Source of the DNA: Haliotis asinina
Lineage: Eukaryota; Mollusca; Gastropoda; Lepetellida; Haliotidae
DNA length: 64,000 nucleotides
Direction: 5' to 3'
Assembly: GCF_037392515.1 (NCBI RefSeq)
Contig: NC_090282.1
Span: 57,932,843 to 57,996,842, forward strand
The translations under genes were made by a program, and so were the position numbers. Positions 8,101 through 52,000 of this stretch are shown here, piece by piece (within the stretch, counting starts at the first letter, position 1; each line of letters opens with the position of its first letter). Below the pieces are notes generated by a model, which searched no databases, was not told the DNA's origin, and worked only from the letters and a program-made list of their open reading frames with translations.

Positions 8101-11100
8101 AAGTAATTGCAGCTCTGACTAAGATGTGTTTCAGAGTTTTATTAAGGCAAAAGACTGTAATGGGTGGTGAAGGGAAGATTTCGCTGCAGCTTATTGAACC
8201 ACTGAGTAAATGCCATGTTTCTGAGCTCTAGGTTCATGGGATTGTAGTTGCAAACTAGCACTGGTTTTGAGTGTGAGACTGGTGCTTTTGTCCCAGTATG
8301 AACAACACACGTCAAATTCTAGGCTTCACCGGTACTCCACTGGTAGCCACCGGCATCCACAGACGTCATGGGTGTAACCACTGGCTGTCACCGGCACTAA
8401 CACTGGCAGCCATGGACCTACACTGGCCACATCACCGGTTCCACTGGTAACCACCGGAATCACCGATGATACCACTGGCGGCCACCAACACCCTACCGGC
8501 AGCAGGCGGCGTGTGTATTGTTCACCAGCCCCACCTCCTGCCCCAGCTCGGACCGTCGGCCACTACCTCCGGCTCTCCTGGGGTATATATACACCCAGTC
8601 ACCACTAGATTCTGATGAAACTAGCCACCTCCTGTGCTAGCATCACAGCATCTCCTCGCCGATTCCGGTCTCTACCTATTTGCCTGTTGCCAGTATCTAG
8701 TAAGGCTTTTCATTAGACTTAAGTAATTACCTCATACATATGTCATGCTTGCAGCTTTAGACAGTATCATCCTTCACTACACATCTCATTGTTTACTTAA
8801 GTTCTTATGATCAATAAATATCATACTGTTGTCGTCAATTATTGACTGGCACCAATGTCAATAATAATCATTAATGAACGTAATTACTGTAGCAGACCTT
8901 TTTACACATCCGCCTAGCAACAAGGTGGTATTTGTTTACATTTGGGTTTCCGCTGAAATATTGATTGGATAGGGCATTGTTTCTTGGTTAGAGATTGGAA
9001 GAATTGTATAGACTTAAGAACTGTTCACTTTCTTCACTATGTTCATGTGTCTAGTACATCCACAGAAAAAAGTGGCTTGATTTTCATGATTGATCCTTGA
9101 TTCGAAAAATCAGTTGATCTATGATTGATGATCAGTCATAGCTCAGACCTTTACAGACCTTGAGTTGACAAGACCAAAATTAGAACTGATTATCATTTCT
9201 GTAGACACAGTTTTAGTGGAAGTGTACTAGTAGCCTAATCACATGGTATAACACAGGATTATTTCTCAGTTTTTCATCTGAATTTTGAAAATCACACACA
9301 AAAATAACCTGATCATTTGCCATTTTCTCTAACAAAAAATAATATTAATACATATTTGTACAGGATAGTTCAAATAGCAGGATATCATTATGATGTTCAC
9401 TTTTGATTTGGAATATATGAAAAAGGTGAAATATTAGTTGTAATTAAGACATATTTATATCATCAGTCTTTTTTAATTGCCCAAGAAGAATCATATCACT
9501 TGTTTCTTGAATTAATCATACCATCATTTGACATGCAGCAAATTCTGGAGTACTAAAGCCTAATTTTTGAAATATGGTTTGATGCTGAAAGAATCTAAGG
9601 ACTGACTATTATCTAACTTTAGAGCAATTACTGTGAACTGCTACAACCCAAAATATCTGCAAGAGAGGATGTGTCATATGCTGAATTTTGTGCCCTGGTT
9701 TTGCGGGAAAGAAAAATCACCGTTTGATTACCCAAATTAAGTGAAGTTCACCAGTGGCATGTGTATTCTGAAATTCACGAAATAATCAAGTGGACTGATT
9801 TATTTTATCTTTAAGTGATTCATGACTTCACGAAGATGGCACAATTTGATTTTTGTGTCATATTATTTGATAGTGTGAATTTCTTTACATGTACATGTAT
9901 CTGCTGGTCCAAATATATTCTTCTGTCAGTGTTATTCAAACTAATGCTCGGGATGTCTTTGTTGGTTCTACTAGTGTTTATGTTTGTTCCTAGATATTGT
10001 CATATATTTCAGAGTGGACTATATACCCCACGCTGTCGAGCGCCCTCAGTTCCATGTCCCCGATGAGTACAAACGGCCTGCAGGGGAGCACGATATGATG
10101 ACATCATACCACAAAGATTACACAGGTAGGTGGATAAATGTAATGAGTCAAGAACTTTATTGGAGAAACTGCAACAGTTCTTGCTTGAATGTGTAACACC
10201 ACTGAGCATGTCAAAATATTGTGCAGCTCTATGTTATGTAAAATAACTAGATTTGGTGAAGGCAATAACTGCCAGTGATCCCCATAGTTTTTATTTCTTT
10301 ATTAAACAGACAAGTAACCATATTTGTCTCTGAATGTAACAGGGGTAGCGTAGTGGTTAGAGCGTTTGCTTGTCATGCTGAAGACTGGGGTTCGATTCTC
10401 CTTTTATACAATATGTGGTGCTTATTTCAGGTGTCCCCTGTCATGATATTGCTGGACTATTGCTAAAAACAACGTACAAACATACTCACTGAATGTAACA
10501 CGTCATAGCTTAGATTATCTTCCCTGAATGGGTACTGAATGTTTGGGTGTAATGGTCTGAAAGTAAATGAGTAGCATTTAAACCCCATTATTATGATGTA
10601 CTATTGATAGTGGAATATATTCTGTATTAATATCCCAAGGTACAAATAAACAAGTAGAAAAGTGCAACGTTGGTGAAAATTATAGAGATTCATTAACCAT
10701 AACATTACTTAAGCAGAAAAATGTCTCATTAGACAAATGTCCTAGATCAGCTGAATCTGGAAGTAGAATCCTGATTCACTCTTCTCATTACAGAAGTTTT
10801 AGTCAACAAAAACTAGAATGGTTAAAAACTCCACAATAGTTAAAAAATGGAGTAGTAAATCATCCTCAATTGCTTTGTGGGAAAACAGAGACCCGTAACA
10901 CTGTTTATGATTATTCAGTTTACATCAATAAATTCTGGTGTTTAAGAATGTAATTTTAGGAATATCCAAATTCATGCAGTATATATAAGTCAACACTGAG
11001 AAATACAAAATGATAAAAATGTAATTTTGAATCTCCAAAATTTTGGACTAATCCTGATCAGATTGTTTACTAAATGCTTGAAGAAGTATATGCCCTTCAG

Positions 11101-14100
11101 CTCCTTAGTGTGCACTGCTGTGATATAATACTTGGCAATTTCACTCAAACATATCAGATTCTCATTGAAGAGGTGCTGTATATCTTATCTGTTGCCATTC
11201 AAACCCTTGCTATTCAAATTTACACTGACTGAAAAACCCACAGTGGTTACTGCGACCAATTCATGATAACAATTTGTTGCCCCTGACAACCTGCTTTGTT
11301 GTTGTGTCAGAGAGCGTGTGCTCCTGGTATCCACGATATGCAAAGTGTGAATGTGTGTATACCTTCATGCTTGCATGAATAAATAATGACACACCTGTCT
11401 GGTGTGACACTAGGTAATGACATACATGCTTTGACTGATTGTAACTCATGCAAGTTTGCATATCACGGCAGTTTTTCTTGGGCTGTTCCTTATTTGATTA
11501 CTTTTGTTTTTTTCACTGTTTTGTGAGTTTTTTTTGTAACTGTATCACATCAACCTATCGTAACACTTGGTGAATAAATTTTGTTTGCTGTAAGTAAGAC
11601 AGAAACTTTCCATCCCACAAGTAGCACACTGCAGATATCAGATTCATATATAACTTGGAAAATGTTCTACAGTGTGAAAAATAATTAAAAAATGAAGCAT
11701 ATGTATTTGCATTTAATATTGTTTATTGTGTATAAAAATAACGGTGAAGGAAAATGACACAGAAGAAGTAAAAAAAGCCCCTTTAATGTCTCTTGTACAA
11801 TGGCACACAACCACTGAAAAATAAACTATAGTTGAGCAAAACACTTCTATTTGATAAACAAGAACTTTCAAACACAACATGTTCAAATATCATTTAGAAG
11901 TTCATCCATCCATCCATTTTGACCTCTGAAGATCCAGGTCAGAAATGGTCTTCAACAATCCATGGTTGTTGTAAGAGGCGATTAAAAGGATCTGGTGGTA
12001 AGACTTGATGACACATATTGTATCCCAATCATACAGAATGATGCTCATGCTATTGTCCTCTGGATTGTCTGGTCCAGTCTCAATTATATACAGACCACCG
12101 CCATAGAGCCTGAATATTGCTGAGTGTGGTGTTGTACAACAAACCAAACAATCACAGGATGCTCACCATGTTGATTTTGTCCACAGAGAAGCAGGGAGCT
12201 CCAGCTAAGGCCATCAAGCAACAAGGCATGCACCATGTTCCTGGGAAGTTCGAAGGGGAACCCACATACAAAAGTGAGTACATATCATTGAGCAGGCAGA
12301 TAGTTATAATCTTCAATGGAAGAAATAGTGACATAAAGCCAGGTTGTCTAAGGTACCACAATCTGTTGTTCACAGATATACCAGAAACAAGGAATAATTG
12401 TTCTGAATCACTCACTAGACCTCCTTGTTTCCGGGGATGTCAGTGTCATACCTGTTGTTTTAGTGAAAGGGTTAGAACTGCATCATGTCAGGTTTTCCTC
12501 CAACATCAGCTCTTTGACATGAAATTGGGCAATGGGGTAGCTTAGTGGTCTCAGCATATGCTTGTCATGCTGAAGACCCAGGTTTGATTCCCCATATGGT
12601 TACAGTGTGTGTTACATACCTGGTGTCCCCAGTTGTGATATTGCTGGAATATGGCTAAAGTGGCTTAACACATTAATCTCTAGTCTGTCTCACAGTCCCT
12701 GAACTACATCATTTTGCTGACTGCCAAGCCTTCTCTGCAGTGCTAAAGCCTTAAATGAAGCAAGTCTAGATTTCTTAAGGTTCAGGAATCTGTTTCTTCG
12801 GCTCCTTTTCCATTAAAATGGGTTTGTTTGTTACTTTCAAAATTATCTATATTCAGAGACAAGGCCTGAGTCTAATTGATCTCCTTTACATGTATGCTCA
12901 TAGTCGCAGGCACAAGAAGCTCTAACCTCCTGCTGGTAATTAAGAACACCAGGAGACACCGGTTTCTTGTGCCTATTTTGCGTGGAAACCTTTTTTTAAA
13001 TACCACTGATGTAGCTGCGAGATAACTTGTGGTGGCAAATTCAAGCAGTGATTAAGAATTGTTGTGTGTTCATAGGTATGTTTGTCTAGAAGGGAAATGG
13101 CTGGATATTATGAAATCAGTCGGTAGCATCTTAAATGTTTCCACTGAAGCATAAATTATTTGCATAGATTTGACCTGTGCATATTTGATTTAATGGATGT
13201 ATATTTTCCCTGACTTAAGATTTCTTAATGCTTCTGTTTCTAGGTGACTACAGAAAGTGGGACATGGCTGGTCGTCCAAACAGATATGGTGATGTTTCCA
13301 CCTGGCACCCTCCTCAGCAGCCTTTTGAAGGCCAGAGCACGTTCACTCGGGATTACCAGCGCTACAACCAGGCTCCCAGAACCTCCATGAAACCAGTGGA
13401 GGCAGCCAAAATGTCTGATGCTCCTTTTGATGGAAACACAGGCTACAATGCTGCATACATTAAACATCCTCTTCAGGCAAAGTTTGTGAAAGAGAAGGAC
13501 ACCTACAAACCATCTGGTGTCCGCTTCGACGGCCTGTCCACCTTCAAGAGAGACTACCAAGGAGCTTATGCACCAAAAACGGAAAGCTGCAAGCCTGATG
13601 CTCAGGCATTCCAATCTCAGGCACCTCTTGAAGACATGACAACCTTTAAGAATGACTACCGGAGATGGGAAGCTGATCGTCCATATGTACGTGACCCAGA
13701 GCAGTACAAGAAGCCAGTTGGCGACATGGACATGAACACTACACATCATTTGGCTTTCAAGGAATATCCTTTACAGCGTGCCTTAGCCAAGAGGCCCCAC
13801 TCTGCCAATGTCATGAAGGCTGGACCTTTCAATGGAGTAACAAACTACTCCACGGACTTCCGCCCGTGGGACCTTGGCCAGAGGAGCCGTCCAGTGATGA
13901 AGCAAGACTACCTACCCAACACTGCACCATTTGAGGGCATGTCCACCCAGAAGTCTCACTACATTCCCCACCCTCTCAACCCCAACCAAAGCTGCAAACC
14001 TTCCAATGACTTCGTCCAGAGCCAAGGTCCCTTTGATGACAACACCATGTACAGGATGGACTACACCCCGAAGGCATCGGAGCCCTGCCCTGCTGCAATC

Positions 14101-14238
14101 ATCGACACCACACGGTCCACTTACAAATTTGTGGAACTTGATACTCGTGGCCACAAGCTTTATCAACCTGTTTTTGAGTCTGTCACACCGCTTAACAGAG
14201 GCACCCCTCAAGCTAAAATGCAAACTCTTGTTGCATAG
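2140..14238 (+). CDS. SAXO: Gene A: SAXO-family stabilizer of axonemal microtubules, 5 exons, about 470 aa
   Basis: Join of 2140-2180, 6699-6875, 10013-10125, 12187-12273 and 13244-14238; phases at the joins are 2, 2, 1, 1 and the total is 1413 nt ending in TAG. SAXO proteins bind and stabilise microtubules of cilia, flagella, basal bodies and centrioles (family knowledge). The N-terminus shows the hallmark Cys-rich motif CICEICTCG across exon 1 and RHRCPH at the start of exon 2, then LLSEY. The rest is Mn-type modules of about 33-34 residues with patterns such as PFDGNTGYNAAY, MKPVEAAK and KRPHSANVM. Length is close to vertebrate SAXO1 (about 470 aa). All splice sites are GT-AG. It could be called SAXO1 or SAXO2; the sequence alone does not decide. 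The 3' half (exons 3-5) was duplicated to make gene B. Confidence 0.9.
3166..3263 (+). repeat. 98-bp direct repeat, copy 1
   Basis: The stretch from GCAATGTTTTGAGCAT to CATTTTGTGTGACA recurs almost unchanged at 5958-6055, about 2.8 kb away in the same intron. Class unknown; it may be a fragment of a dispersed element. Confidence 0.7.
3680..4075 (-). repeat. Degraded R2-family repeat
   Basis: Reads on the minus strand. The right end GACTGCCACCATATAG...GGAATATTGTGC and the left part with CTGGCTTAGAATTGGTCTCTAA are diverged versions of the R2 copies at 11900-12150 and 31475-31712. Boundaries are approximate. Confidence 0.35.
5091..5237 (+). mobile_element. tRNA-derived SINE copy
   Basis: Begins GTGGGGTAGCCATGTGGTTGA (A-box region), followed by a mutated B-box (GTTCAGTTCCCC) and a short tail with GTGGCATAAAAC and CACACACTC. 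An old copy in intron 1 of gene A. Confidence 0.65.
5958..6055 (+). repeat. 98-bp direct repeat, copy 2
   Basis: Near-identical partner of 3166-3263, with a few substitutions (GAGCATCATATCACC instead of GAGCATCGTATTACC). Confidence 0.7.
6105..6217 (-). mobile_element. tRNA-derived SINE copy, minus strand
   Basis: Reverse-complement SINE: AATATTTCAGCAGGGGACATC, AAATGGGCTTCACACATTGT, GAATCGAACC (B-box complement) and AAGGCTACCCTAC (A-box complement). In intron 1 of gene A, antisense to the gene. Confidence 0.7.
6699..6875 (+). CDS. SAXO: Gene A exon 2
   Basis: 177 nt between CCTCACAG and GTATGT, phase 2 at both ends. It completes the Cys-rich motif (GRHRCPHRP) and carries LLSEYNTTYRAHPIVPRESC, the segment that aligns with LSEYSKRYHTHPIPARESY encoded by the second exon of genes B and C. 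It ends DRTTHR with the Arg codon split. Confidence 0.88.
7391..7543 (-). mobile_element. tRNA-derived SINE copy, minus strand
   Basis: Shows CCAGTAATATCACGACAGGG, AAATGGGCTTCACTC and CACATAGCTACCCTACCACC, the reverse complement of SINE body and head. Diverged copy. Confidence 0.65.
7654..8105 (-). pseudogene. Penelope-like retroelement fragment with GIY-YIG endonuclease domain
   Basis: Minus-strand frames encode HLLACNSCNKQHVGETKRAF then RTRLSEHFADITHKRDNH, the pattern of the GIY-YIG endonuclease that ends Penelope-like reverse transcriptases, where the VGET block and RLSEH are typical. Upstream on the same strand are NDCQSHSVVH and a Cys-rich stretch (SCKVCRN) that also fit the family. No reverse transcriptase region is present and the frame is broken near 7694-7881, so this is a 5'-truncated dead copy in intron 2 of gene A. 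Confidence 0.7.
8310..8510. repeat. Imperfect CACCGG/CCACTGG-rich simple sequence
   Basis: A GC-rich island in AT-rich surroundings made of irregular repeats of CCACTGG, CACCGG and GCCACC. No fixed period and no convincing frame. Confidence 0.45.
8511..8870 (+). mobile_element. LTR-like stretch, possible solo LTR remnant
   Basis: Follows the order of a retrotransposon LTR: GC-rich lead, TATA box (GGGTATATATACACC at about 8581), then AATAAA (about 8814-8819) and an end near TTATTGAC followed by TGGCACCAATG, which could be a primer-binding-site remnant. No partner LTR or gag/pol frame is visible and it sits beside the Penelope fragment, so the call is tentative. Confidence 0.2.
10013..10125 (+). 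CDS. SAXO: Gene A exon 3
   Basis: 113 nt between CATATATTTCAG and GTAGGT. Read in phase 2 it gives VDYIPHAVERPQFHVPDEYK and then RPAGEHDMMTSYHKDYTG. The copy at 29809-29921 (gene B) differs by Ala-to-Asp and Glu-to-Lys in HAVER/HDVKR. The frame is fixed by the DYIPH module pattern. Confidence 0.88.
10342..10490 (+). mobile_element. tRNA-derived SINE copy (shared by both units)
   Basis: GGGGTAGCGTAGTGGTTAGA (A-box), GGTTCGATTCTCC (B-box), GATATTGCTGGACTATTGCT and CATACTCACT. Its counterpart is at 30138-30290, so it predates the segmental duplication. Confidence 0.8.
11900..12150 (-). repeat. R2-family repeat, minus strand
   Basis: Runs from GATCCAGGTCAGAAATGGTC through TTGTAAGAGGCGATTAAA and CAGACCACCGCCATAGAGCC to ATTGCTGAGTGTGGTG. 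It duplicates the copy at 31475-31712 and ends about 40 bp before exon 4. Confidence 0.65.
12187..12273 (+). CDS. SAXO: Gene A exon 4
   Basis: 87 nt between TTGTCCACAG and GTGAGT, phase 1 at both ends. Encodes EKQGAPAKAIKQQG and MHHVPGKFEGEPTYK, a module with the FEGEPTY turn typical of the family. The gene B copy (31751-31837) differs by one silent change (ACA/ACT). Confidence 0.87.
12274..13243 (+). other. SAXO: Gene A intron 4
   Basis: About 1 kb with one SINE (12534-12672). It ends CTTCTGTTTCTAG. The in-frame ATG at 13228 lies inside this intron and is not a start codon. Confidence 0.78.
12534..12672 (+). mobile_element. tRNA-derived SINE copy (shared by both units)
   Basis: GGGGTAGCTTAGTGGTCTCA, GGTTTGATTCCCC and GATATTGCTGGAATATGGCT. 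Counterpart at 32091-32231. Confidence 0.78.
13244..14238 (+). CDS. SAXO: Gene A exon 5 (main Mn-module exon, stop)
   Basis: 995 nt from the acceptor TTCTAG to TAG at 14236-14238. It opens DYRKWDMAGRPNRYGDVST, then one 618-bp block (13303-13920) of six modules from WHPPQQPFEGQSTF to KQDYLPN, then two further modules (TAPFEGMSTQKSHY, GPFDDNTMYRMDY) and a short tail ending QAKMQTLVA. The 618-bp block occurs three times in gene B. Confidence 0.92.
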
Positions 14239-16140
14239 TTACTGCCTTTTGAAAGACTAATAACCACATGTACAGTTTGTATCCTTCCATGGCTGTGGCG
14301 AATTCTGATTTTAATATTGATCTAAGTAAGAAGTAGTAAAATACATTCATCTTTTTTTTAAAGCTAGAAATGTAATGTTACAATGCATGCACATTCAAAT
14401 TATAGGGTAAATTCTGAATTCTAAATGTTATTTTTTCATGTTTTTGGTCACTAGAGAGAAGTTCATAAGCTCAGCCAACCACTGATACATGGTGGGAGGA
14501 TTTTTGTAGACACATAGTATTAATGTGTTGCAGCATTGGAAGACTATTATTCCGTCCAGAGTTATCTGCCTTGCTACAGCAGGCTTCTCCATTCTGCCAA
14601 ATGTGTGATTCTGCCATAGTTAATAATATAGACATATTTTTAAACGCATTTTTATCATATTCTGTAGGAAGTCTTGTAGATTCACTGCCTTCATAGAGCC
14701 ACTTGACTGATATATAAATCTGTTATATTTGTTGCCTAGAAGGAAACTATTTTATAGTCCTTCCATTGGTAATATTTCACAGTTAATTTTATTTATGAAT
14801 ATTCATATATAACTGTATGTTTTGTTCAGAAAGAAATACTTCGAATTTTTATTGGAAAAGCATTTTCGAGAATTGTTTTGACCAGTTTTTCTTTTCCAGG
14901 AAGGAAGATATGTTTCATTCATTCCATTGTTAGTGACTCTTCTTTAAGTTTTCTTGCAAATTTATGAATGATTTTATTATTAGGAAAAAAGTCTATGCAG
15001 ATTTATAACTGCCAGGCCTGGTAGCTGGCTTGTTTATTATTTTGATATGTGTATGTTACTCATATGTCCAACATACTGTGATATTCAAGTGTAAATACTG
15101 TCAATCAACAAATTTAAATTCTCTTTAAGGAACATTGTTATTTATTGAGGAATTGTTGAATTTGTCAAGATGGGGGTAGAGTGATTATCTTCAATTTCGA
15201 TATTTCGATAATGAAGGATTTTGTTTGAAGATATTCATGATATTAGTACACCAGTCTTTATCTTTACATGTCTGAATTTTTCCAGCACTTTTGTTGTGAA
15301 AATCAAAGAAGAATTCCAGTTCGTTCACTGTTTCAATTTCTAACATTTAAGCCCTGTGTGTTAGGTATTGTATTAAATCACCAGAGTTTTTGTTTTTATA
15401 AGGTTTTTTAATATAGAAACAATAATTATAATCCAGTAAAGAATTTGTTAAGGCAAAACAGAACAAATGGTTGATATTATGATAAAGAAAAGCAAGATCT
15501 GTAAGACTGTTTCATGTTTTCCCATGTATTCTTGTTACTTAATCATGAGTATCAGTTTTCGATTGAGGACTTTCATTTATGGTTTGTTCAGGAAAAGATA
15601 TCGGAAATATTAGAGAATCCCTTTTCTTGATATTTTAAAGAATAAAAGCGTGTTGTTTACGTAACTGAAGTTACAAAGATCATGCTACTATTAAGTCCAG
15701 CAACACAATTGTTATCCTTGTTCAGTAAGATAATTATATTTCAATGAAAACCATTAGGAAAATTGACATTTCATGTAAGATGTAATCTGTTGTAATGTTT
15801 GTAATATTGATAAATATAAAATGATTCCTATTTCACAATGTTCAAACCTGTTTCATTAGTGTAGAAGTGACTGAGTGCATTGGTAACTGCACACTGATGA
15901 TAGATACATGTGCTTGTATGTTATGTACAAATATTTGTCTCGTGTTGAGAGAATGTAGAGACATTTCAGTGCTGAAATGAACATCACTGTCATTGTAAAT
16001 AAATGTAACTAATTATCTATGTGAACTTTACTCTATCAATTATTGGTACCACATCTGTGATCTGGTTTTGATGTTCTCATCAGAACACTGGGTATTCATT
16101 GGAAAAGATATCTCGCAATAAAACATGCAAATGTCACATC
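14239..16140 (+). other. SAXO: Gene A 3' untranslated region
   Basis: About 1.9 kb, AT-rich, without a credible frame and well conserved with 35022-38270 downstream of gene B apart from the transposon there. The end is placed after the AATAAA at 16117-16122, which is followed by a GT-rich stretch (GTTGTTTTTTGTGTC). Earlier AATAAA hexamers (for example near 15642) could give shorter forms. Confidence 0.6.
16117..16122 (+). promoter_or_regulatory. Candidate poly(A) signal of gene A
   Basis: AATAAA in CTCGCAATAAAACATGC followed within about 30 nt by a T/GT-rich element. The context is conserved at 38248-38253 downstream of gene B. Confidence 0.55.
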
Positions 16141-16189
16141 TTTCCGAGTTGTTTTTTGTGTCTGAGGGTAAGTGATATGGGATAAGTAT

Positions 16190-16357
16190 GGTAAGGCATC
16201 CAAGTGGTTAAGGTGTTCGCTTGTCATGCCAAAGACATTGGTTTAATTCCTACATTGGCACAATGTGTGAAGTCCATTTATTGTATCCCTGGCCATGATA
16301 TCGCTGGAATATTGCTATTTATTGCTGAAATATTGCAAGAGACTAAGACTGAACTCA
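16190..16357 (+). mobile_element. tRNA-derived SINE copy (shared by both units)
   Basis: Head GGTAAGGCATCCAAGTGGTTA, then GGTTTAATTCC, GATATCGCTGGAATATTGCT and CTGAACTCACTC. It has a short internal duplication of TATTGCT. Counterpart at 38320-38492. Confidence 0.75.
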
Positions 16358-16421
16358 CTCTGCTTGAAAAGTGGTCCATTAATGGGTCAAATTAATCTTC
16401 AGCAAAGCCGAAAGTAATTTT

Positions 16422-16623
16422 GGGAAAGTTTCCACCCGTAACCCCGTTTTATTTTATCATTCTATAATAAAGAACAAAATTTTCTTAGCAAAAATCTTTA
16501 ACACCAACCATTACCCTAACCCTAAACCACATTCTTACTCTAATCCTAAGACCCTAAAACCTCGAAATAATCCTAATAAATAGGATACTTCTCAAGCGGG
16601 GGTTACGGGCGGAACTCTTACCC
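16422..16623. mobile_element. Candidate MITE, unit 1 only
   Basis: About 200 bp with imperfect inverted ends: the left end starts GGGAAAGTTTCCACCCGTAA and the right end ends TTACGGGCGGAACTCTTACC, complementary with a few mismatches. The interior is AT-rich and contains a CCCTAACCCTAA stretch. The corresponding place in unit 2 has unrelated sequence, so the target site cannot be read cleanly. Confidence 0.4.
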
Positions 16624-17795
16624 ATGGATTCACTTAATGAACTGGTAACCTTGTAATCTATTGAAAGATTTCTAGAATTACAGTAGAGAGTGAAATAAAT
16701 ACCACTCACGTGTACTGCACTCTATTTACTACTTCCTTGTTGTAATTATGTCTTGTCAATCGTGTTTTCCAATTTTAACTTTCAAGAAAGTAAGAAAGTC
16801 AACAAAGACAATATGTGGCATCATCATTAATGCGCAGTTTGGATACGATGACATGTGTCTCCCAAGTCAGCGAGCCTGACTACCAAATGAGGTAATTCTG
16901 TTAGTTGCCTCCAACAAGCATGGTTGCTGAAGGTCAATTCTAAACTGAGTGTATCACGTGAGCATGATACTGTCGCAGGAACTACAGACAGTTGATTCTA
17001 TCTGATGTATTTTATTCGAAAGATGATAAACCTGTGGATCACAACAACATACTATAGGTGTTGCCGGACATGGCTGTCCATAGACAATATTAAGGTTAAA
17101 TAATTTGTCAAAATATTCAAAGTGTTCAAAATATATTTGGTGGGATTAATTGTACTTTATACAATTAAAAATAATCATTTGCAATTCTCCCAAAACATGG
17201 TTGGATGTTATGTTGAATAAAAGTCAAACATGAGAAATAAACATCATCTACATAATTACCACAGTCATTCAAAATTCACAACATACCTGTGGACCACAAC
17301 AACATCCTGTTGTTGCCTGACATGTTGTGTGCTGGGCACATGTAGCTTTTATAGAGAGCAGTCATATGACCTTCCTCTGCAACACTTGCATCGGCTGTAT
17401 GTGCCAAGGCACAGGATGTACCTGTCAGACCACAAGTAAGGTGAACTGTCTGTGCCAACATGGGTGAGTGCTGAAAGTAAGGTGCAGTGTTAATGACAAA
17501 ACATTTTAGCCTGTGATACTAGCAGAAATCATTATTTCTTGATTATAATGTTTATAGTAAATCATTAACATCTATAAATCAGCCCATAACCTTGGTAATA
17601 CCACAATTATTTGATGACAGACTACATTGGGATTGTTACGAGCGCTTCTGACAATTTAAATCATCAGCGCGTCGATTCTGCAGGCGACAAGTTTGAACAT
17701 GCCGGGAATCTTTAACGCGAGGGAGAAAGCATAAAGGGAGACGGCTAAATGGAAAGCGCGCGTAAATTTCCAAACTCTCAACTGAAGGCGTGTGG
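16624..17795. other. Intergenic sequence, no gene seen
   Basis: Holds an R2-like fragment at about 16835-16960 (GTTTGGATACGATGACATGT, AGCGAGCCTGACTACC) and a stretch at about 16945-17517 absent from unit 2, in which CCTGTGGATCACAACAACAT recurs in variant form. ORFs of about 60-70 codons on both strands show no family features. Confidence 0.5.
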
Positions 17796-17796
17796 T

Positions 17797-17854
17797 TCGG
17801 TAGCCTGTTGGTTAAAAGTTTTCGCTCGTCACAATGAAGACCCGGGTTAACTTT

Positions 17855-17870
<16 letters not shown>
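17797..17870 (+). mobile_element. 5' half of a SINE split by a LINE insertion
   Basis: GTTCGGTAGCCTGTTGGTTAA and GAAGACCCGGGTTAACTTTCCC followed by GTGTGT; the body resumes at about 20690 (TGTGAAGCCCATTTCTGGAG). The undivided copy is in unit 2 at 39517-39677. Confidence 0.75.
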
Positions 17871-20685
<2,815 letters not shown>

Positions 20686-20689
20686 AAAT

Positions 20690-40830: not shown

Positions 40831-40841
40831 ACGGGTAGTCA

Positions 40842-40955: not shown

Positions 40956-40958
40956 TGC

Positions 40959-41039
40959 AGTCTAAGTAAACTTAGTCTCAATGTTATTCGTTACACTCCA
41001 CTCAGTAGGCTCAGTACTGAGACTAGGTTTACTTAGACT
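40959..41039. repeat. 81-bp foldback (inverted repeat), unit 2
   Basis: Left arm AGTCTAAGTAAACTTAGTCTCA-type, 22 bp, and a right arm complementary with one mismatch. Same loop as in unit 1. Confidence 0.76.
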
Positions 41040-42648
41040 GGTGCTCATGATGTCACTCTCTGGTTTGTCTGGCCTGATTAACAGAAAGCCCTCGTATTAG
41101 GTCCTGGGCCAAACCCTTTAATTGTAGAATTTACCTCCAAGACTGAGGTGATTGGTTTTTCTGCTTAATTGTGCCAGAAAGTGACATGTGTTTTCCTTAA
41201 AATATATGTTTGTTGAGGCATCAGACAACAAATATACAGTAGTATTATCAACTATTCATGACCACTTAAATTCAATAGTTTACATACTTGCAATGAATAC
41301 ACTGCTTGAACTCTTGCCAACCGTCTACAATGTACTGGTACAAAAACACATACAACAAAATCTAGGCCCTGGGCTTGAGCTGGAAGTCCGTTCACCTCAT
41401 ACATGTATATTTGTTTCTCACGTCTTGCGTAAGCAACTAAAGAACTCAACTTTGCCTACGTCTTCAACTCGACGTATTCTTAATGTTCGTCTTAATTATG
41501 AGCTAATTCCCCGTCAACCATATGAACGCAGTGTAGCAAATGCTATGCTGGATGGCCGCTCGATGTCTACACGACCAGTTTCATGTCTTTACTTTGTGTC
41601 AGTGCAAAAGTGTCATATGCTTCGGAATCAGAATCCTTATATTGACACACAATGCCATTCGTACCTACTCGGCTTGCCGGAATGACACGAGTAGTTACGA
41701 ATGACACAATGCCTGGCAATATGTCCTAACGACCACAATAGCAACAGAAAAACAAACACATGGGACGAAACCGGATTCAGCTGTATGTTATCTTTGACCG
41801 GCTTTCTGTACACCGACTGAGTCAGGTGAAAATCAGAAGCCTTGGCATTGCGTAAAAGTCTTGAAAGTGGGAAACTGACATGACGTCCTAACATGTTAAA
41901 CCCATGACTATCCCAAAAGTGGAACACATTTAGCTGCATGTTTTGTAACCACAGTCACCGTAAACCGAAGGACGAAGATAAGCATTTACCTGAAAAGGAG
42001 ATTAAAAAAAATGGGAATCTGAAATAGATTTGATTTATTTACAAACATTATTGAAACTGTGTGAAACAGCAGTTTCTGTGATTTGGTTTGTTTGTTTGTT
42101 GTTTAGCGCCGCACCAGCAATATTTCAGCTATATGGCGACGGTCTGTGAATAATAGTCTGCACAAGACAATCCAGTGATCAACAGCATGAGCATCATCTA
42201 CGTAATTGGTTACGATGACATGTGTCAACCAAGTCAGCGAGTCTGACCACCCGATCCCGTCAGTCACCTCCTACGACAAAATTTGGTTGCTGAAGACCAG
42301 TTCTTCCTCGGATCTTCACGTGTACTACTGTGCCGAAAATAGCCGTCGAAACACAGCAAACCTCAAGTCCATAATACAACCGAATTTTCCACCCTCGAAT
42401 ATACATCTTTTTCTGTGTTTAATTAGCATTATACAGTGGTGTTGCTTTCCAGAGACATCTCGTTTTGATGCCGCTGTTGCTGATCATCGCTTTCGGCGAG
42501 ATTCCAGCTGTATGACCACGATCTGTAATTAATTAATCGACAATCCAGTGATAGACACCATATACATCGATCCAGGTAACTGTTATACCATGACATGTGC
42601 AACCAGATCAGCCAATACGCCACCCCATCCCTTAATCATATTAATGTC
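41040..42648. other. Intergenic sequence with an R2 repeat, no gene seen
   Basis: Aligns with 21456-23090. The 165-codon frame at 41188-41685 is not preserved in unit 1 and has no family features. An R2 repeat lies at 42088-42305 (AGCGCCGCACCAGCAATATT, CAGCATGAGCATCATCTACG); unit 1 lacks it and part of its surroundings. Confidence 0.5.
42088..42305 (+). repeat. R2-family repeat
   Basis: TTTGTTTGTTGTTTAGCGCC, GCAATATTTCAGCTATATGG and GACAATCCAGTGATCAACAG, then AAGTCAGCGAGTCTGACCAC and GGTTGCTGAAGACCAG. The best preserved copy in the window. Confidence 0.65.
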
Positions 42649-42807
42649 GCGGTGAGGTAGCCTGAAGGTTAAAGCGTCCGCTCGTCAAGCCAAAGACCCG
42701 GGTTTGATTCCCCACTTGGGTGCAATATGTGAGGCCTATTCCTGGTGCCCCCTGTCGTGATATTGCTGGAATATTGCTCATGCGGCGTAAAACTATATTA
42801 CTCACTA
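42649..42807 (+). mobile_element. tRNA-derived SINE copy, full length
   Basis: GAGGTAGCCTGAAGGTTAAA, GGGTTTGATTCCCC, GATATTGCTGGAATATTGCT and GCGGCGTAAAACTATATTAC. The partner in unit 1 is cut at 23191. Confidence 0.8.
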
Positions 42808-43079
42808 ATCGCCTTACACGACAAACACTGAGGACCAGTTCTAACCCACATTTACAGGGGCTGTGTGTGAACCACAGGAATGGACACAGAGTGAAGAAAC
42901 TGATGCAGGCTATTCTTTGCTGACGCTCGAATAAGCTAAAGGGTTTACCCATGTGCTGATCCTTTTGTCTTGACACTTTGTTAAACTGATCCCTGAAACT
43001 CAGGTGAAATTGAAGTGTGCACTTTCTCAAAACGCTGCATCCACCCCATTTACCTGTTATTAGTGTGAATGACACTGAG

Positions 43080-44044
43080 TCAGAAATAGGTTCTTCGAAA
43101 TGTCCCCAACAGAATGTTGGCTTCGTGCGATACTGATATTTCGTTCTTCACAGATAAGCCAGTATAACACTCAATGGCTGTAGACGGGCGTGTCTCCTGC
43201 TCATAAAATTGATCTGATTCAACGTTACTTGTATCCATCACGCAAACCTTTGCTCCATTTAATAACGAATGCTGTTGACTTGTACCTATCTGTGTTGTAT
43301 TAACAACACAAAGAACGCTTAAGACAGTTAGGATTCTACGTGTCTACCCTTCCGCAAACACCTACAGACCATTCATGACTCCACCCGGACTACGGCCAAT
43401 ACAGCGTCGTTAAGACCAGATCGACATTATAAAGAAAAGATGTCCCACAGTTATTTGGACAACACAGGGAACCGGCATTGCGTAAACCTTTAATACCCAC
43501 AGGGACAACACTTTCTCCATAACGATCTGGTGTGGCAACAGCGGTTACGGCGACAATAAACACAAAACACATCTCTTGATGGCCTATTTGCTGCAGAGCA
43601 TCGTTGCCTGTCGTACTTTACGCGTCAATCCGCTTTCGATCCAGGTTATTGATCCTATTTTGAAAGTTGGAATAATTTCTGGTCTCCTGGAGACCTGCAG
43701 GACAGTGTGAGGAGCGTCTGTCACCACTGGTGTCTCTCTGATTCTGAGAAGCTCACAACAACGCATCTCCATGGGAACATAGGCGTGGTTGAGCTTCGCG
43801 CTGGAAGCATCCAAAATATTTCCTATATGAATGCTGCATGACATAAAATCTGACTGGAACAATGATGGCTGGTTGTTGTTATTTGATACAGATCTAACTG
43901 TTGACTCGCGACTGACTTATGGTACAAATCAAATTGTCTCGCTTTAGTTGGCGAAAATTAAGAATACTGTGAAAGGTACAATGGCACTCTCTATGCTGAA
44001 ACAATGATTGTGCAATATCACACGTAGATGTTGGGTTTGTGACA
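43080..44044. other. Unit 2-specific block with two small unexplained minus-strand frames
   Basis: Includes the segment inverted relative to unit 1 (about 43261-43383). On the minus strand 43584-43862 (92 codons) and 43390-43572 (60 codons, hydrophobic start MCFVFIVAVTAVATP, and a CCPNNC motif) are open in different frames. I do not recognise either; the second could be a secreted-peptide exon or chance. Confidence 0.3.
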
Positions 44045-44480
44045 TATGGGTTCGGTGAGACCCTGTAGGATCTGACACATGACTTCAGTGAGACCCTGTA
44101 GGATCTGACACATGGGTTCAGTGAGACCCTGTAGGATTTGAAACCTGAATTCAGTGAGACCCTGTAGGATCTGACACATGGGTTCAGTGAGACCTTGTAC
44201 GATTTGACACCTGAATTCAGTGAGACCTGTAGGATTTGACACATGGATTAAGAGAGAGTCTTTGGGATATAACACATAGATTCAGTGAGGCCACATAGAG
44301 TATAACACATGGGTTAAGTGGTACTCTGTAGGGTATAACACATTGATTCAGTGAGGCCATGTATCGAAAAACATATGGATTCAGTGAGACCCTGTAGGGT
44401 ATAAGATGGATTCAGTGAGACCCTCTCGGGTTTGAAACAATAATTCAGAGAGACCTTCAAGGGTTTGCAACGGGGATTCC
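44045..44480. repeat. 33-bp minisatellite, about 13 degenerate copies
   Basis: Unit TTCAGTGAGACCCTGTAGGA followed by TCTGACACATGGG. Copies are close to consensus at the left and decay to the right. The Leu/Tyr-rich minus-strand frames over it are products of the repeat. Unit 1 lacks the array. Confidence 0.85.
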
Positions 44481-45660
44481 CTGAGGCTGTTTGACATTTT
44501 TTTAAAAATCTATGTTAATCTTGAATCAAAGTTTTGACTGACATGAAATAGATACGCAAATTAGAAGTCACGCTTCCTTGGCCGTTCGCTGAGTTGACAG
44601 TTACAAATCCATTTGATAACGTTGGTGACAGTCATGAACGAAACTGATGTTGTTACAGTTGCCGTTGTTTCGGGCAAGCTCACGTGTACATGCACAGTAC
44701 ATAACTGCAATCTTCACCAAAGGCGAAGAGTAACGCACTCATATGTAAGCTGATTCAGTGTCGGACGTGATTACATTTCTCCCCCTTCTGTGTGTGACGG
44801 TAGGTTACATGTGATCGTCATAACGACGGGGATAATAAAACTATAATAATATTTATTCAGCCCATGTAAATACCATTGGGAAATCCGTCTACACCATCCA
44901 CACAGTATTGTGTTGGCTCAGGGTTGTTTGGGTAAGGTGCCTGTGTTGTGGTTGTAGATAATCTGGATAAAACTCAGTACTAGAGGTTCGTAAATACCCG
45001 ATATCCGTTGGGGTTAAATCAGTGTTAAATGTACTAGATGTCCAGGGGACATCTGTATGTCGTGACTACGTTTGGTGTCATACGACGTTGGGTGTAATGC
45101 GCTAATCCATGTGGCTTTTGGCATTGTACATCTTAATGTTATAATAAATTCGCTGTAACAAACAATATTTGACTAGTCGTAATTCAATGACAGGAAACAA
45201 TAACAAAACCACGACAGTCAGCCCAATAAAGGGATCCTAAAACTGACAAGACACACTCGTACGCACACAAACACGCACACACTCTCACATTACCACCACC
45301 AAACGCTACATAGAATGAAAAACTGTTAATAGATACAATGTGCCAACAAATGAAACAATAATTAAATCTGTATAATAAAAATGATATCTAAATGGGGAAA
45401 AAATAAAAAATAAAAATGGGAAAGAAATTTACGGCAGTAATAATGTGACAGGCGGCCTGAACCACCCACATATTGTATACATTATTGTGTATTTTATGAA
45501 ATTTATTTTAACAGTCAAACTTATACAGTAGCTTAGGATAGTTTAGGCAAAAGAAGCACCCCTTAAACATGCTGGACTAAACGTCTTCCTAAAGACCGAT
45601 AAAGCCGCTGGACACCAGCGACAAGTTGATAATGCGTGACAAGAACATTATTGACATATA
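44481..45660. other. Intergenic sequence upstream of gene C
   Basis: Up to about 45115 it has no counterpart in unit 1; after that it follows 23450 onward. No gene, inverted ends or known repeat seen. Confidence 0.45.
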
Positions 45661-45864
45661 ACACATGCTTCATTTAGTGTTCACTCGACCTGGCAATTAC
45701 ATCCTGAATAGAACACTTCTGACCAGCGTCCATGGTCGAGACTCGAACACAAATGAAGTACCATTGTGTTGTTATGACTTCTGTGTGGAAATAATTGAAG
45801 AAGAGCGAAATAGATTTGTCGGTCGATTTTACAGTGCACTCGTTACGCTCACAACATATCTTCC

Positions 45865-45920
45865 CACCGTTGCTAAGGAAGGAAGTCTAAACACGCAGAC
45901 GACGCTTGCCTAGCAACGAC
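45865..45920 (+). promoter_or_regulatory. Candidate ciliary promoter of gene C
   Basis: GTTGCTAAGG (45869-45878) and CCTAGCAACG (45909-45918) are opposite-facing RFX-like half sites about 40 bp apart, with a TAAACA core between them (in GTCTAAACACGC). They lie about 100-150 bp upstream of the candidate start at 46018. Position and pairing support the call; no experiment is implied. Confidence 0.45.
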
Positions 45921-46017
45921 TCAGTGGCGTCCCGCCGCAATACCTTCGCCGCAGTGCTCGGACTTGCGATGTGTTGATCAGGCTTGTTACATAAGTGGGA
46001 TTTAAGAAAGGGCCAAA

Positions 46018-46028
46018 ATGGCGAGAAG
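46018..46028 (+). CDS. SAXO: Gene C exon 1, candidate
   Basis: ATGGCGAGAAG then donor GTAAGC, the same as in gene B, giving MARR across the splice. Phase 2 fits exon 2. Supported by conservation of the ATG-donor pair between units and by the nearby RFX-like sites. Confidence 0.45.
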
Positions 46029-49000
46029 GTAAGCCTCAATTATCGTTAGTACATTTATGTGGTGTAGGGAGAGGCGCTCTATCTGGTAATGTTAATGTCG
46101 TCTGCACAACAAAGGAAAATGGGGTCGTGTGCAAATGGCCTCTTCGCTTCAATGCTGAAGTATACTATCGTCAGTATGTCTTATGAATGTTACCTTTACA
46201 AGCCATTCAGGAGATTCTCAGTGTTGTCAAATAACCCATATGGAAGCGACAAACACGCTCACAAATGCTCCCAGTGCGCGGGTAAGCTAATGTGGCAGAC
46301 GACAGGTGACATGGGATTTGTGTCGTGCCGAAAGCTTCATTTAACACACACCAGATGAAATTGCTGTCAGAAGTGTTTGGTAGATATTTCTCATGTTCAA
46401 ACAGCTAGTACCTGTTTCTGGACTTATAATTAAGCGTCTCAATGTAAACATAAGTTTCACATTTCCTACAACATAGTTCAGGTTTACATGTCACATACAT
46501 TTTACTTATCATGCTGGTATTTACTTGTTACATTGAAGAAACGTTTGATAATGGATATTCACAACCACCATACTGGAGAGAACAGGCCCCCCTTTTCAGA
46601 ATGACTGGAATAAGTGAATATAAGATCATTATCTTCGCATATGACTAAGCGCCTTTGAGCAGTTTTCCGGATGAAGGCGCTATTACCATGCCTAAATTAT
46701 TGTTATAATAACGTATGTGTCACTATGAAAATAGCCCTAATACTATGAGTTATATATCTTATCTATTATCTGTTCTACAGTGCTGTGGGGTAGCCTAGTG
46801 GTAAAGGCGTTCGCAATCACGCCGAAGACCCGGGTTCCATTCCCTACATGGGTACAATGTGTGATGCCATTTCTGGTGTCCCTTGCCGTGATATTTGCTG
46901 GAATATTGCTAAAAGCGGTGTAAAACCATACTCACACAATTCACTCTTCAGTGCAGTTAATTCTTCCGTCAAACTGATACAGCGATTTCACGACTTTTGT
47001 CAAATCCTTGAGTCTGTTTTTTCACAATAACATACCCCACTAGTATAGGCATGTTATTATTATTCTGTGCCTCGAGAAGTACCTTGAAAACCTCCTCACA
47101 AGGCAGTCACTTTATTGATATGCAAAATTAAATACAGACATATCAAAAAGCAAATCGATTAGATGTATTTACGTCTGATCTCATAGACATGTGATCAGAG
47201 GATGAAATAGTTTTATTGAGCAGTTATTGAACAAATATTGTTAAAACCATAACTAAATGAACGAATCGTAGATAAAGCTGTATACGCGACGTTCGTCATG
47301 AATTATGTGAAATGACGTCACAATTATAGGGTTCCTTTGTTTATGACGTCACACCACCACCTATGCCGTAGTAATGATTGTCGCAACGAGGAAGTAGCGT
47401 CGCTTGGTCGTCTGTTCCTCACAGTCTTTGTACGCAATGTCAGAATTGGTGAGTTTGAAAAAAATAAGACCTGTATACAGTATACATGTATATTTACAGT
47501 ACGCAAACGCAATAACAACAAGAGTGGAACTGTAACTTGATAAGCGGCGAACTTTCCACGTCTTAGTATGTTAGTATAGCCCGACATGACAGATTTGTTT
47601 GTTTGTCGCCTAAGGCCGAACGTCGTAATTTTCAAGCTGTATGTAGATATTATAGTGTTTGACATCATGAACATCGATCTACGCTGGTCAGATACAGTGG
47701 CATGTATCAACCGAACGAGCTTGACCACCCGACTAATGAGAACTGGGTCGTTCGCTCGCCCGTGCTCTTCCTGTTGATCAGGGGTTTATCTGGTCAAGAT
47801 TCGATTCCTTAAAGGCGGATTGTGGGGTGTAATGCGCCAGTAACCCGCGATTGACTTTTATAGCCAAGTGCATGGTTTGAGTAACATTTGTTTGGCGGGA
47901 TGTTACCTCATGACATGATCTGACTGCGTAATCTTTTCAGTGTATATTTTGATTAATATGTTTAGAATCGACCAAGATCGCACGAGGGAGTTGTAGGTTG
48001 TATTTCCGAATACATGCCTGTGTGCATTGGGTGTATCTCTGTATATACTTGCATGGAATGGAGCGTTTCGCGGTAAACATGATTATATAGATAAGGGCGT
48101 ATCTCCTTAGGGGTGTACCTCAGTATATTCTTATATGGAGTTGGGCGTATATCATTATATGGTTACATGGAGATGTATCCCCGTATATATATTTACACTT
48201 ACAGGGGTGTAGCTCCGTATACATGCTTACATAAAGTCTGATGTATCCCCGTAATTCATGCTGTCATAGAGAGAGGTGTATCCCCAAAACAGGCTTACAT
48301 AGAAAGGGATGTATCTCCGTTTACATGCTTACATGGAGTGGGAGTTTCACCGTACGCTTACATGGAGTTGGTTGTATCCCCGTATTCATGCTTTCATAGA
48401 GAGAGGTGTATCTCCAAAACATGCTTACATAGAAAGGGGTACCGGTGTATCTCCGTTTACATGCTTACATGGAGTGGGAGTTTCACCGTATGCTTACATG
48501 GAGTTGGTTGTATCCCCGTATTCATGCTTTCATAGAGAGAGGTGTATCTCCAAAACATGCTTACATAGAAAGGGGTACCGGTGTATCTCCGTTTACATGC
48601 TTACATGGAGTGGGAGTTTCACCGTATGCTTACATGGAGTTGGTTGTATCCCCGTATTCATGCTTTCATAGAGAGAGGTGTATCTCCAAAACATGCTTAC
48701 ATAGAAAGGGGTGTATCTCCGTTTACATGCTTACATGGAGTGGCATATATCCCCGTATACATGCTTACACCCAGAAGAGGGGTATATTTACGTATATATG
48801 CGCGTGTGAGTGTGTATCTCCGTTTACATCATCACATGGAGTGGGAGTTTCACCGTATGTTTACATGGAGTTGGGTGTATGTTCGTATACATACTTGCAC
48901 TGAGCGTGGCGTATCCCTGTGCACGTGCTTACATAGAGTTGGATGTGCCTCTGTATACATGCTTACGTGCAACCGGCTCTATTTCCGTACACATGAACGC

Positions 49001-52000
49001 GTTCACTGGGGGTATACCTCCCCATGCATTTCGCATGATGCCGGATGTGTCTCTGAATGCATGTACACCAGGCATGGTGCATATTTATATGCATTTCGAT
49101 GGCCGAACACAGCTGCTTGTTACTTGAGGTTCCTAAGATGTTCTTGAATACAACGGGATGCACATTTACCACTGTTATCTTTTTACCATGCTTTACATAG
49201 GGAAATGTGGAAATACCTTGTTTTTTCATTGTAAATATGTTACCACAGTAAAAAGAATATTAAGAAAGTTTCTACTTGAAAAGTACAATAGGGAAAAAAA
49301 CTGCATATTTTAAAAAAATATTCCGAGATCAATCCAGACTTATTTAGTGATGAACCGAGTGACTCACAGATATAGATAGAATCTCACGTCCAAATTATCA
49401 TTAAAACATAACCGACACACCTCGTGAATTCCATGCACCTGCAATGAACGTATCTCTATCTGTTTTCACGCCCAGAAATTACTGCTGGTCGTGTAACCAA
49501 GAGCAAAGTCAATAACATGTTCTACACTAGTCTGGTATCTAGGGACGCTACTTCAGTAGATATACCATGTAAATTCGGCTTGCGTGTGATATACTACACT
49601 ACACAGATGGCACGTAATGACAGGTTGTAAATAATTGAAGGCCACTTGTAGCCCTTCGTCTCAAAGGACGTCATAAACGTGAAATACAGCTAATAGAGGT
49701 CATAACTGAGAGTTATATTCACAGTCAGAGTAAGCACACTTGTAATATTAATTAACTGACATAATATGACAAACAGCTTGAGCAACGACGAATACAACGA
49801 TGATGCATAGTGTTGTCATTGTTGTTGTTGTTGTTCTTGATATACCAAAGCATTGTTTTGAGGAAATATACGCTGTGCATATAGTATGACGTCGCGGAAC
49901 ATTGGGCTAAGGTCATTATAAACCCACTGTCATGCTTCGACACGCACCTGTGCTCGTGTATTTCAAACAATGATTGACACAAGGTATAGCACAACATATT
50001 GGTTAATTTTAATTATGTTTCATCCATTCATGGCCGTTGACAACTATCGCCTTAATAAAAATGAATATTTTATGCTCTGGGTAGGAAGAAATCAATTTCA
50101 TGACAAGACCTCGTATGCCAATGAAATCGAATGCTTTGCAATTCAAACTTGTACAGAGAGTCGGCTTCGTGTTTCAGCCGGTCTGTTGTGCATGTGTGAC
50201 AGAATAAGCTGTAGCCTACACAATATAATACACTTGGCAGTTGTGGCACTTAGCTGTTTATGCCCACGACAGGTGGCTTATGTAGTGCTGTTGCTACCAA
50301 CACCTACCTGAACAAAATACAAATGGCGCAGCCGTTTAGAATACAGCTCCTTGACATACGAGGGTGTTATTATTCTCGTTGGGTAACTACCATTGTCATC
50401 ATTAACTGTTAAATATTGTTAGAACAAGCCTTTTTTCAATGAGTCGACTGGATTGTGTTTTTCAGACCGACTATCATAACCGTGAATAGACATAAAGAAA
50501 TGCCGATGCTGCATATTTCAATACGTTATGTATTCATGTTTACATGTTCATGTTCTGGTCATTATTCGTGCGGAGGGTGAGGTAGCTAGTTATTACTCAG
50601 TAACTGGTAACAACGTCGTGTGAACAGCTTGTAGAGACCTTGGACTGGCTATGTTCGATCAGCACGCTACAGAATATTACTGTGAGTGCTTCTTTCTCAT
50701 GATGAACTAGCATCTCAACGACATACAGTTAAACGTATCATTTGATGTTTCAGACAAAATGGTATAATCGATGTTGACGACAACGCACCGTTTCTGTCCG
50801 AGTACTCTAAGCGGTACCCCACCCACCCGATTCCCGCACGGGAGAGTTACAAACCCACCTACGAGCCTGTGAGGGTGGACGCGAACATGGAGACCAAGAC
50901 AACTACCGGGTAAGAGGGGTAGAGCAGTCACGCCCCGGGGGCTCATGGGCTGCAGGGACGCTGCCTAATGTGTGATTCTAAACGTACAGGTGGCTTTGGG
51001 GATAATTCGGATGAGATGTAGCCTGTGGCCAATCGAATCACAAACCTTGGTTATAGTTTAACAGTGGTTGAATTAATTTGCTTAGTGTTGTAGTCATCAA
51101 TAAGTAAGATATTTCGAAGCCGTGACTCTCTCACGGGCAGGTGACGGTAGGACGCAACACACTTGAGGATAGTTGCGCACCCCTCAGTCGTGGATGTGTT
51201 GTCATGTGACGTGCGTGATTCCTATGTGTGCGTGTTGTCATGTGATGTGAGGGACACCTATCTGTGTGTGTGTGTGGTGTCATGTGATGTGCGTGGCACC
51301 TATCTGTGTGTGTGTGTGGTGTCATGTGATGTGCGTGACTCCTATGTGTGTGCCATTTGATATAAATGAAACAAATAATACAAAACAGTTGCACTTGATG
51401 AGGATGTAATGAACCTAGTAATGGCCCTGGTCGCAGTGTTTCTGACAGACTCAGCTTAGATGTACGGGGTATATATTTGTTTCATCTATTTTCTATGTGT
51501 AAGAGAACGCAAACTTAGAATAACAAGACCACACTAACATTAGACAAAATGAACCTTGTCTGTAAAGTTTAATTTTGATGTGGTCAAGAACACATTGTAA
51601 CCTCTAATGGTGCCTCTAACGGTACAGACTGTTACAATACTTCGGTTGAATAATATATTAGCAGTGGGTGCCTCCTGCACGCTGCAGTAGGTAAATAGTG
51701 TTAGTTATTTATGATAATGTCCCTTGGTCACCTTTGAGATTTATGTGAAGTAACAACCTATCAACTGTTATGGTCAGGCAAGTAATGCCGCACGCAACGC
51801 AGATCCAGTCTGCCGGACTAATATGAATGGAGACATATGACATACCGTGCGCCACATATGGTTACTTCATTGCTTTTAAATATTGTATGAGAGGGACATT
51901 ATACCAGTTTACAACCCATGCTCACACCAGCCTATTCTGGTCATAGAAGGCCATCAAATGGATCTCAGAGTCAGACTCGGTTCGTCACAATATCAGTCAC

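What the first reader, a model, noticed from the sequence alone, without database searches (positions are those of the whole stretch)
9559..51583. Tandem duplication created a chimeric SAXO gene between its two parents
The order is A complete, then C-type exons 1-2 joined to A-type exons 3-5 (gene B), then C complete. This is exactly what a head-to-tail duplication running from intron 2 of A to intron 2 of C must produce. Exon 2 of B ends in phase 2 and exon 3 of A starts in phase 2, so the new gene is in frame: it takes the promoter and N-terminus of C and the module domain of A. Both parents are intact beside it, so the event can be read directly. I do not know of a description of this case.
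Basis: partly seen in the sequence, partly recalled or inferred. Interest (0 to 1): 0.9.

Follow-up and report, generated by a model that had tools for sequence, protein, structure and literature searches.

The report
Hybrid cilia gene from tandem duplication
In an abalone-like snail, a ~20-kb stretch running from inside one cilium-microtubule gene to inside its neighbour was copied head to tail, leaving an apparently intact hybrid gene between its two intact parents; the way such genes arise is already known, but here the event can be read directly from the sequence.

Summary
Unit 1 (9558-29325) and unit 2 (29325-51583) are collinear head-to-tail copies. Unit 1 begins in intron 2 of gene A; unit 2 ends in intron 2 of gene C. 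The one new junction, at 29325, joins C-type to A-type intron 2 with 1 bp shared. A (470 aa) and C (at least 2865 aa, exon 1 unresolved) are open. B reads C-type exon 2 into A-type exons 3-5 in frame, with GT-AG splice sites. All three match Pfam SAXO1-2; the 16 genome matches found all lie in this window. Noncoding divergence between units is 4.6%. If B alone were unconstrained, the absence of frameshifts in its compared exons would have P about 0.008. Expression is untested and exon 1 of B and C is not settled.

Chimeric genes from tandem duplication are documented in Drosophila, so this is a new member of a known kind. Beyond the finding: B then gained a 618-bp internal amplification (one to three copies, six microtubule-binding modules each). 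The recent duplications seen in C are also six modules, and A carries a six-module period. Six 8-nm modules equal the 48-nm axonemal repeat. That link is suggestive only; mammalian SAXO1 and the N-terminal part of C do not show it.

The parts
2140..14238 (+). Gene A: SAXO, exons 2140-2180, 6699-6875, 10013-10125, 12187-12273, 13244-14238; 470 aa; N-terminal cysteine motif; 12 Mn modules (11 cores plus N-terminal SEY element)
   Evidence: Pfam SAXO1-2 on the exon 5 frame E 2.7e-36; modules; motif 1 compared with the expression in PMC3280300: 12 of 15 positions agree
9558..29325 (+). Unit 1 of the tandem duplication (A intron 2 to C-type intron 2)
29325..51583 (+). Unit 2 of the tandem duplication (A-type intron 2 to C intron 2)
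29325..29325 (.). Novel junction between units; 1-bp shared G; no N in the window
28538..28693 (+). Gene B exon 2 (C-type); 2 substitutions from C exon 2 in 153 bp compared, both amino-acid changing
29809..29921 (+). Gene B exon 3 (A-type)
31751..31837 (+). Gene B exon 4 (A-type)
32809..35021 (+). Gene B exon 5 (A-type), module region, open to the stop codon
   Evidence: Pfam SAXO1-2 E 3.5e-76
32863..34721 (+). 618-bp (206 aa, six Mn modules) in-frame internal repeat, three copies in B against one in A
26305..26324 (+). Gene B exon 1, candidate 1 (C counterpart 50061-50080), open in both copies; unconfirmed
26776..26807 (+). Gene B exon 1, candidate 2 (C counterpart 50536-50576), start codon not conserved and one 1-bp indel inside; unconfirmed
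50754..62135 (+). Gene C without exon 1: exons 50754-50909, 52549-54156, 54355-54756, 55018-55620, 55997-56599, 56909-62135 (numbered 2-7); 2865 aa, 84 cores
   Evidence: Pfam SAXO1-2 on two frames of C
56962..59920 (+). Six-module (603-bp) tandem repeats inside C exon 7

Best explanation
A tandem duplication of about 20 kb, with breakpoints in intron 2 of gene A and intron 2 of gene C, produced gene B between its two intact parents. B consists of the C 5' part and the A 3' part. The join shows 1 bp of shared sequence, as in end joining or a replication-template switch rather than crossing-over in homologous sequence. Both introns interrupt the Mn core at the same place and phase (TTxx|xDY, phase 2), so splicing across the new intron restores both the reading frame and a complete hybrid module. 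B then expanded internally by two more copies of a 206-residue, six-module block, from 12 to 24 modules by my count. B most likely encodes a microtubule-lumen stabiliser of cilia or sperm flagella. Shown: the anatomy, the junction, the open frames and the family match. Inferred: one-step origin, C-like expression, protein function, selection on B.
For: Collinear units and clean junction. Best local alignment of A 9300-9800 with C 51350-51800 scores 22, away from the breakpoints; no shuffles were made for that pair, but with the same scoring, shuffled intron pairs of 198-376 bp reached 21-28. Open frames and GT-AG splice sites in A, in B exons 2-5 and in C exons 2-7. Noncoding divergence 4.6% over 11,731 sites with 9 indels per kb, 17 blocks between 92.2 and 97.5% identical. 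Frameshift-length indels expected in 1326 bp of B coding sequence: 4.9 if B alone were unconstrained, observed 0, P 0.008; 9.8 if both copies were, 0 of 20,000 draws without one. A/B exons 3-5: dS 0.0375, dN 0.0142 over 392 codons. SAXO1-2 matches in all three genes; 16 of 16 genome matches lie in this window.
Against: No transcript or protein evidence was available. Exon 1 of B and C is unresolved, so B could lack a proper start. The amino-acid evidence for constraint on B alone is weak: P 0.04 at the noncoding rate, 0.18 at the synonymous rate. B differs from A by one 18-bp in-frame gap near the C-terminus and by GHK to GDK at a tail position where A and mammalian SAXO1 agree. Gene conversion with A could also keep B's frame open. 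The two-step duplication-plus-deletion history is not excluded.
Confidence: 0.9

Rival explanations
1. Two steps: a larger duplication of both whole genes, then a deletion from C intron 2 to the second A intron 2.
For: Would leave an identical final sequence; Sdic in Drosophila arose from a segmental duplication followed by fusing deletions (PMC7475035, passages).
Against: Needs two events where one suffices. It need leave no trace, so nothing in the window speaks against it except parsimony.
Confidence: 0.07
2. Assembly artefact: two haplotypes of the region placed in tandem.
For: 4.6% divergence is not impossible for alleles of a highly polymorphic marine animal (recalled).
Against: No N in the window; the joined flanks share 1 bp, so an overlap-based misjoin has nothing to overlap; the units differ by large insertions, including one with a reverse-transcriptase match in unit 1 only.
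Confidence: 0.02
3. Unequal crossing-over between homologous stretches of intron 2 of A and C (the anti-Lepore type).
For: A and C are family members with intron 2 at the same module position and phase.
Against: The two breakpoint regions show no alignment at the breakpoints; best local score 22, within the range of shuffled pairs elsewhere.
Confidence: 0.04
4. B is a non-functional by-product: frame still open by chance or by conversion from A. (This concerns B's fate, so it does not exclude the duplication history above.)
For: Unresolved exon 1; dN/dS about 0.38 between A and B; candidate exon 1 number 2 is not conserved.
Against: No frameshift in 1326 bp at 9 indels per kb; the later internal amplification is in frame in both added copies.
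Confidence: 0.2

Closest known systems
Chimeric genes formed by tandem duplication in Drosophila yakuba (PMC5460883, passages read)
   Same: Duplication that ignores gene boundaries joins the 5' end of one gene to the 3' end of another; 76 chimeric genes reported from 15 lines.
   Different: Those are polymorphic and many are called very young; here the copies differ by 4.6% and the parents are two members of one family joined in introns of the same phase.
Sdic of Drosophila melanogaster (PMC7475035, passages read)
   Same: Segmental duplication spanning two adjacent genes gives a chimeric gene, linked to sperm competition, that later expands.
   Different: Sdic fused through later deletions and expanded as whole genes; B appears fused at the duplication junction itself and expanded inside exon 5.
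Anti-Lepore haemoglobin and CYP11B hybrid genes (recalled, no call)
   Same: Hybrid of two related neighbours lying between both intact parents.
   Different: Those arise by unequal crossing-over in homologous sequence; none seen at this junction.
SAXO1/SAXO2 (PMC3280300 and PMC9564825, passages; chain 8ou0_D)
   Same: Mn modules 33-34 residues apart; A has the N-terminal cysteine motif and 12 modules, the number reported for mouse Saxo1.
   Different: No cysteine motif was found for B and C, whose exon 1 is unresolved; B has 24 modules and C about 85.

Membership tests
SAXO proteins | Repeated Mn/Mn-like modules with T/S and F/Y six positions apart | tested here: met
   A 11, B 23, C 84 cores at 33-38 residue spacing; two cores each in A and B were added by hand and one tail match each in A and B was dropped; plus an N-terminal SEY element in each. 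Pfam SAXO1-2 in all three
SAXO proteins | N-terminal cysteine motif 1 (expression given in PMC3280300) | tested here: inconclusive
   A: RRCICEICTCGRHRC agrees at 12 of 15 positions. B and C: not found by the C.C..C.C scan of the window or the relaxed scan of 14000-29000 and 36000-52000, but their exon 1 is unresolved
SAXO proteins | Microtubule binding and axonemal location | not testable with these tools
   needs protein experiments
Chimeric gene by tandem duplication | One novel junction between head-to-tail copies whose outer borders are ancestral | tested here: met
   that the outer borders are ancestral rests on parsimony, no outgroup was available
Chimeric gene by tandem duplication | Hybrid is transcribed across the junction | not testable with these tools
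   no RNA data
Anti-Lepore type unequal crossing-over | Crossover within homologous sequence of the two parents | tested here: not met
   no alignment of the two source regions at the breakpoints; best local score 22, shuffled pairs under the same scoring 21-28

The most novel reading that the evidence does not exclude
SAXO genes grow in steps of six modules because six 8-nm modules match the 48-nm repeat of the axonemal doublet. B gained exactly +6 and +6, starting from a duplication with 1 bp shared at its ends by my reading; the recent duplications seen in C are six modules; and A and the C-terminal part of C carry an older six-module period. The genome would then hold a record of selection for axonemal register, and C (84-85 modules, about 670-680 nm if fully extended) would be an extreme case.
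Probability: 0.25. Interest if true: 0.7.

Novelty: new member of a known kind. Interest (0 to 1): 0.42.

Why it matters
The event can be read with little reconstruction: both parents, the hybrid, the junction and the later internal growth of the hybrid are all in 64 kb. It shows why intron placement matters: because intron 2 of A and introns 2-6 of C sit at one position and phase of the repeated module, a break in two such introns can give a whole, in-frame protein. If the six-module steps hold up in other species, SAXO genes would give a sequence-based handle on how axonemal proteins keep the 48-nm register.

Tried and rejected
Homology-driven crossover was rejected because the breakpoint regions do not align at the breakpoints. 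A repeated element at the A-side breakpoint was not supported: the 398-bp flank has one match, itself. The same test for the C-side flank did not complete. Other copies of the unit: only the 1.2-kb stretch 29000-30200 was searched; 4 of 41 matches are the expected ones here, and the other 37 are short matches (about 55-65 bp) of one dispersed stretch.

The automatic chain covers 57% of unit 1 and left out two collinear blocks (13298-15451 and 26088-26967) because of its overlap rule. I put these back by hand, trimmed. The tripled region of B exon 5 was left out of the noncoding counts.

The six-module idea was tested for failure. The mammalian SAXO1 stretch (8ou0_D, 405 residues pieced from the alignment, ends missing) shows no significant six-module period (P 0.11 for lag 6 alone, 0.51 over lags 1-7). 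C modules 0-19 show only a two-module period (similarity at lags 2, 4, 6: 0.552, 0.548, 0.553). A is significant (P 0.0056 over lags 1-7) and so are C modules 60-83 (P 0.0008 over lags 1-12); these parts of C were chosen by me after seeing (all). SPM1 homologues have 5 to 13 repeats, and the six motifs of FAP363 span two protofilaments (PMC8144581, passages), which argues against a strict rule. The spacing at the B repeat joints is 38 instead of 34 residues. C's total of 84 or 85 is not clearly a multiple of six, depending on whether the N-terminal element is counted.

Exon 1 of B and C: scans for the cysteine motif and for ATG exons of the right phase did not decide it.

Full report
What was checked. 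The 64-kb window lies at G000:C3:57932843-57996842 of a 1.14-Gb genome in 159 contigs. The genome has 6 matches to the egg-lysin family, two of them with stop codons inside, and one exon of these genes matches egg- and sperm-lysin chains in the PDB, best E 1.7e-11. That such lysins are proteins of abalone and their relatives is recalled. I therefore call the organism abalone-like; its name was not given and I did not establish the species.

Duplication. BLASTN of the window against itself gives same-strand, collinear matches that pair 9558-29325 with 29325-51583. The units are 19.8 and 22.3 kb. Insertions lie on both sides, among them one in unit 1 (about 18.3-20.6 kb) with a reverse-transcriptase match. 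At the base level, the sequence right of 29325 matches A from 9558 on, the sequence left of 29325 matches C up to 51583, and one base (G) is shared. The two source regions do not align at the breakpoints; their best local score is 22, and shuffled pairs of shorter sequences under the same scoring reached 21-28. Over 17 aligned blocks with coding positions removed, 11,731 sites differ by 4.6% (K80 0.048) with 9 indels per kb, and block identity runs from 92.2 to 97.5%. This fits one event; it was not formally tested against several.

Genes. A has five exons and 470 codons, including a cysteine motif that agrees at 12 of 15 positions with the one published for SAXO (motif from PMC3280300, passages). 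C, without its unresolved exon 1, has six exons and 2865 codons. B joins C-type exon 2 (28538-28693) to A-type exons 3-5 (29809-29921, 31751-31837, 32809-35021). The splice leaves two codon bases before and one after, and the frame runs without a stop to the end of exon 5. All three match Pfam SAXO1-2. A whole-genome search with that family lists 16 matches, all 16 in this window (the tool searches exon by exon and calls such counts lower bounds).

Why the hybrid is in frame. Intron 2 of A and intron 2 of C both cut the Mn core between the threonine pair and the DY pair in phase 2 (A: TTHR|VDY; C: TTTG|QDY; the codon before the bar is split), as do introns 3-6 of C (TTSR|QEF, then TTAR|SDF three times). 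A's other introns sit elsewhere or in another phase. A join between two introns of this kind splices in frame and makes a complete hybrid module; B has TTTG|VDY. This is read from the sequence; that it eased survival of the gene is inference.

Is B kept? Noncoding sequence between the units has 86 frameshift-length indels, of 105 indels in all, in 11,627 aligned sites. For the 1326 bp of B coding sequence compared (exons 3-5 with A, exon 2 with C), 4.9 would be expected if only B were free to change, and none is seen (P 0.008). There is one 18-bp in-frame difference besides the amplification. Amino-acid changes give weaker support (dS 0.0375, dN 0.0142; P 0.04 or 0.18 depending on the neutral rate used). 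Exon 1 remains open: one candidate is not conserved between the copies, the other is open in both, and no transcript was available.

What happened next in B. Exon 5 of B holds three copies of a 618-bp block that A has once. The two joints read the same sequence over the 60 bases printed, share one base with the source by my reading, and keep the frame. Each block is 206 residues with six Mn cores. With the N-terminal SEY element counted, as the 12 modules given for mouse Saxo1 seem to require, A has 12 and B 24.

A wider pattern. C has 84 cores. Its exons 3-6 are 1608, 402, 603 and 603 bp, exactly 8, 2, 3 and 3 times 201 bp, that is multiples of two modules. Taking the nearest of equally good matches, 47 of the 84 modules of C have their best match six modules away; in B it is 22 of 23, and in A 6 of 11. 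By shuffling module order, the six-module period is significant in A (P 0.0056 over lags 1-7) and in C modules 60-83 (P 0.0008 over lags 1-12). It is not significant in mammalian SAXO1 (P 0.51), and C modules 0-19 show no separate signal for it. Published work places Mn motifs 8 nm apart and gives the doublet a 48-nm repeat (PMC9564825, passages), so six modules equal one repeat. An ordinary alternative is that an old six-module duplication makes later unequal crossovers step by six. That serves for C, and less well for B, whose first duplication shows little shared sequence at its ends (not tested against shuffles).

Literature. Formation of chimeric genes by tandem duplication is established (PMC5460883, passages: 76 chimeric genes in 15 D. 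yakuba lines; Sdic, PMC7475035, passages). A search for a mollusc case (12 of 45 papers listed) and searches on SAXO module numbers (3 of 3, 2 of 2, 15 of 16 and 9 of 10 listed) showed no paper whose title or opening abstract describes this gene or a six-module step. These searches cover open papers only and do not show absence from print.

Verdict. The kind of event is known; the case is unusually legible. The six-module pattern is the part I would follow further.

Noticed in passing
55018-55620 and 55997-56599: Two neighbouring exons of C are 99% identical over 603 bp while the introns around them do not align above shuffled controls; exon-limited gene conversion is the likeliest reading, independent intron gain a bolder one.
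   Followed up: partly
52549-56599: Lengths of C exons 3-6 are exact multiples of 201 bp (two modules), with their introns at the same place in the module.
   Followed up: partly
18300-20566 and about 26970-28474: Insertions present in unit 1 only. The first has a reverse-transcriptase match on the minus strand at 19304-19906; the second lies in the presumed intron 1 of B, and its two minus-strand frames tested gave no Pfam match at E 0.01.
   Followed up: partly
22451-22650 (copy at 41635 to about 41834): A 200-bp stretch about 6 kb upstream of B exon 2 is identical between units against 4.6% average divergence; possible regulatory element, other gene or conversion tract.
   Followed up: no
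48219-48769: A 136-bp, about four-copy tandem repeat that looks built of 34-bp units, longer than the 34-bp array at 25262-25357 in unit 1.
   Followed up: no
30138-30200: A stretch of about 60 bp matches 37 places outside this window, of 41 matches in all, probably a short interspersed element (the tool calls repeat counts lower bounds).
   Followed up: no
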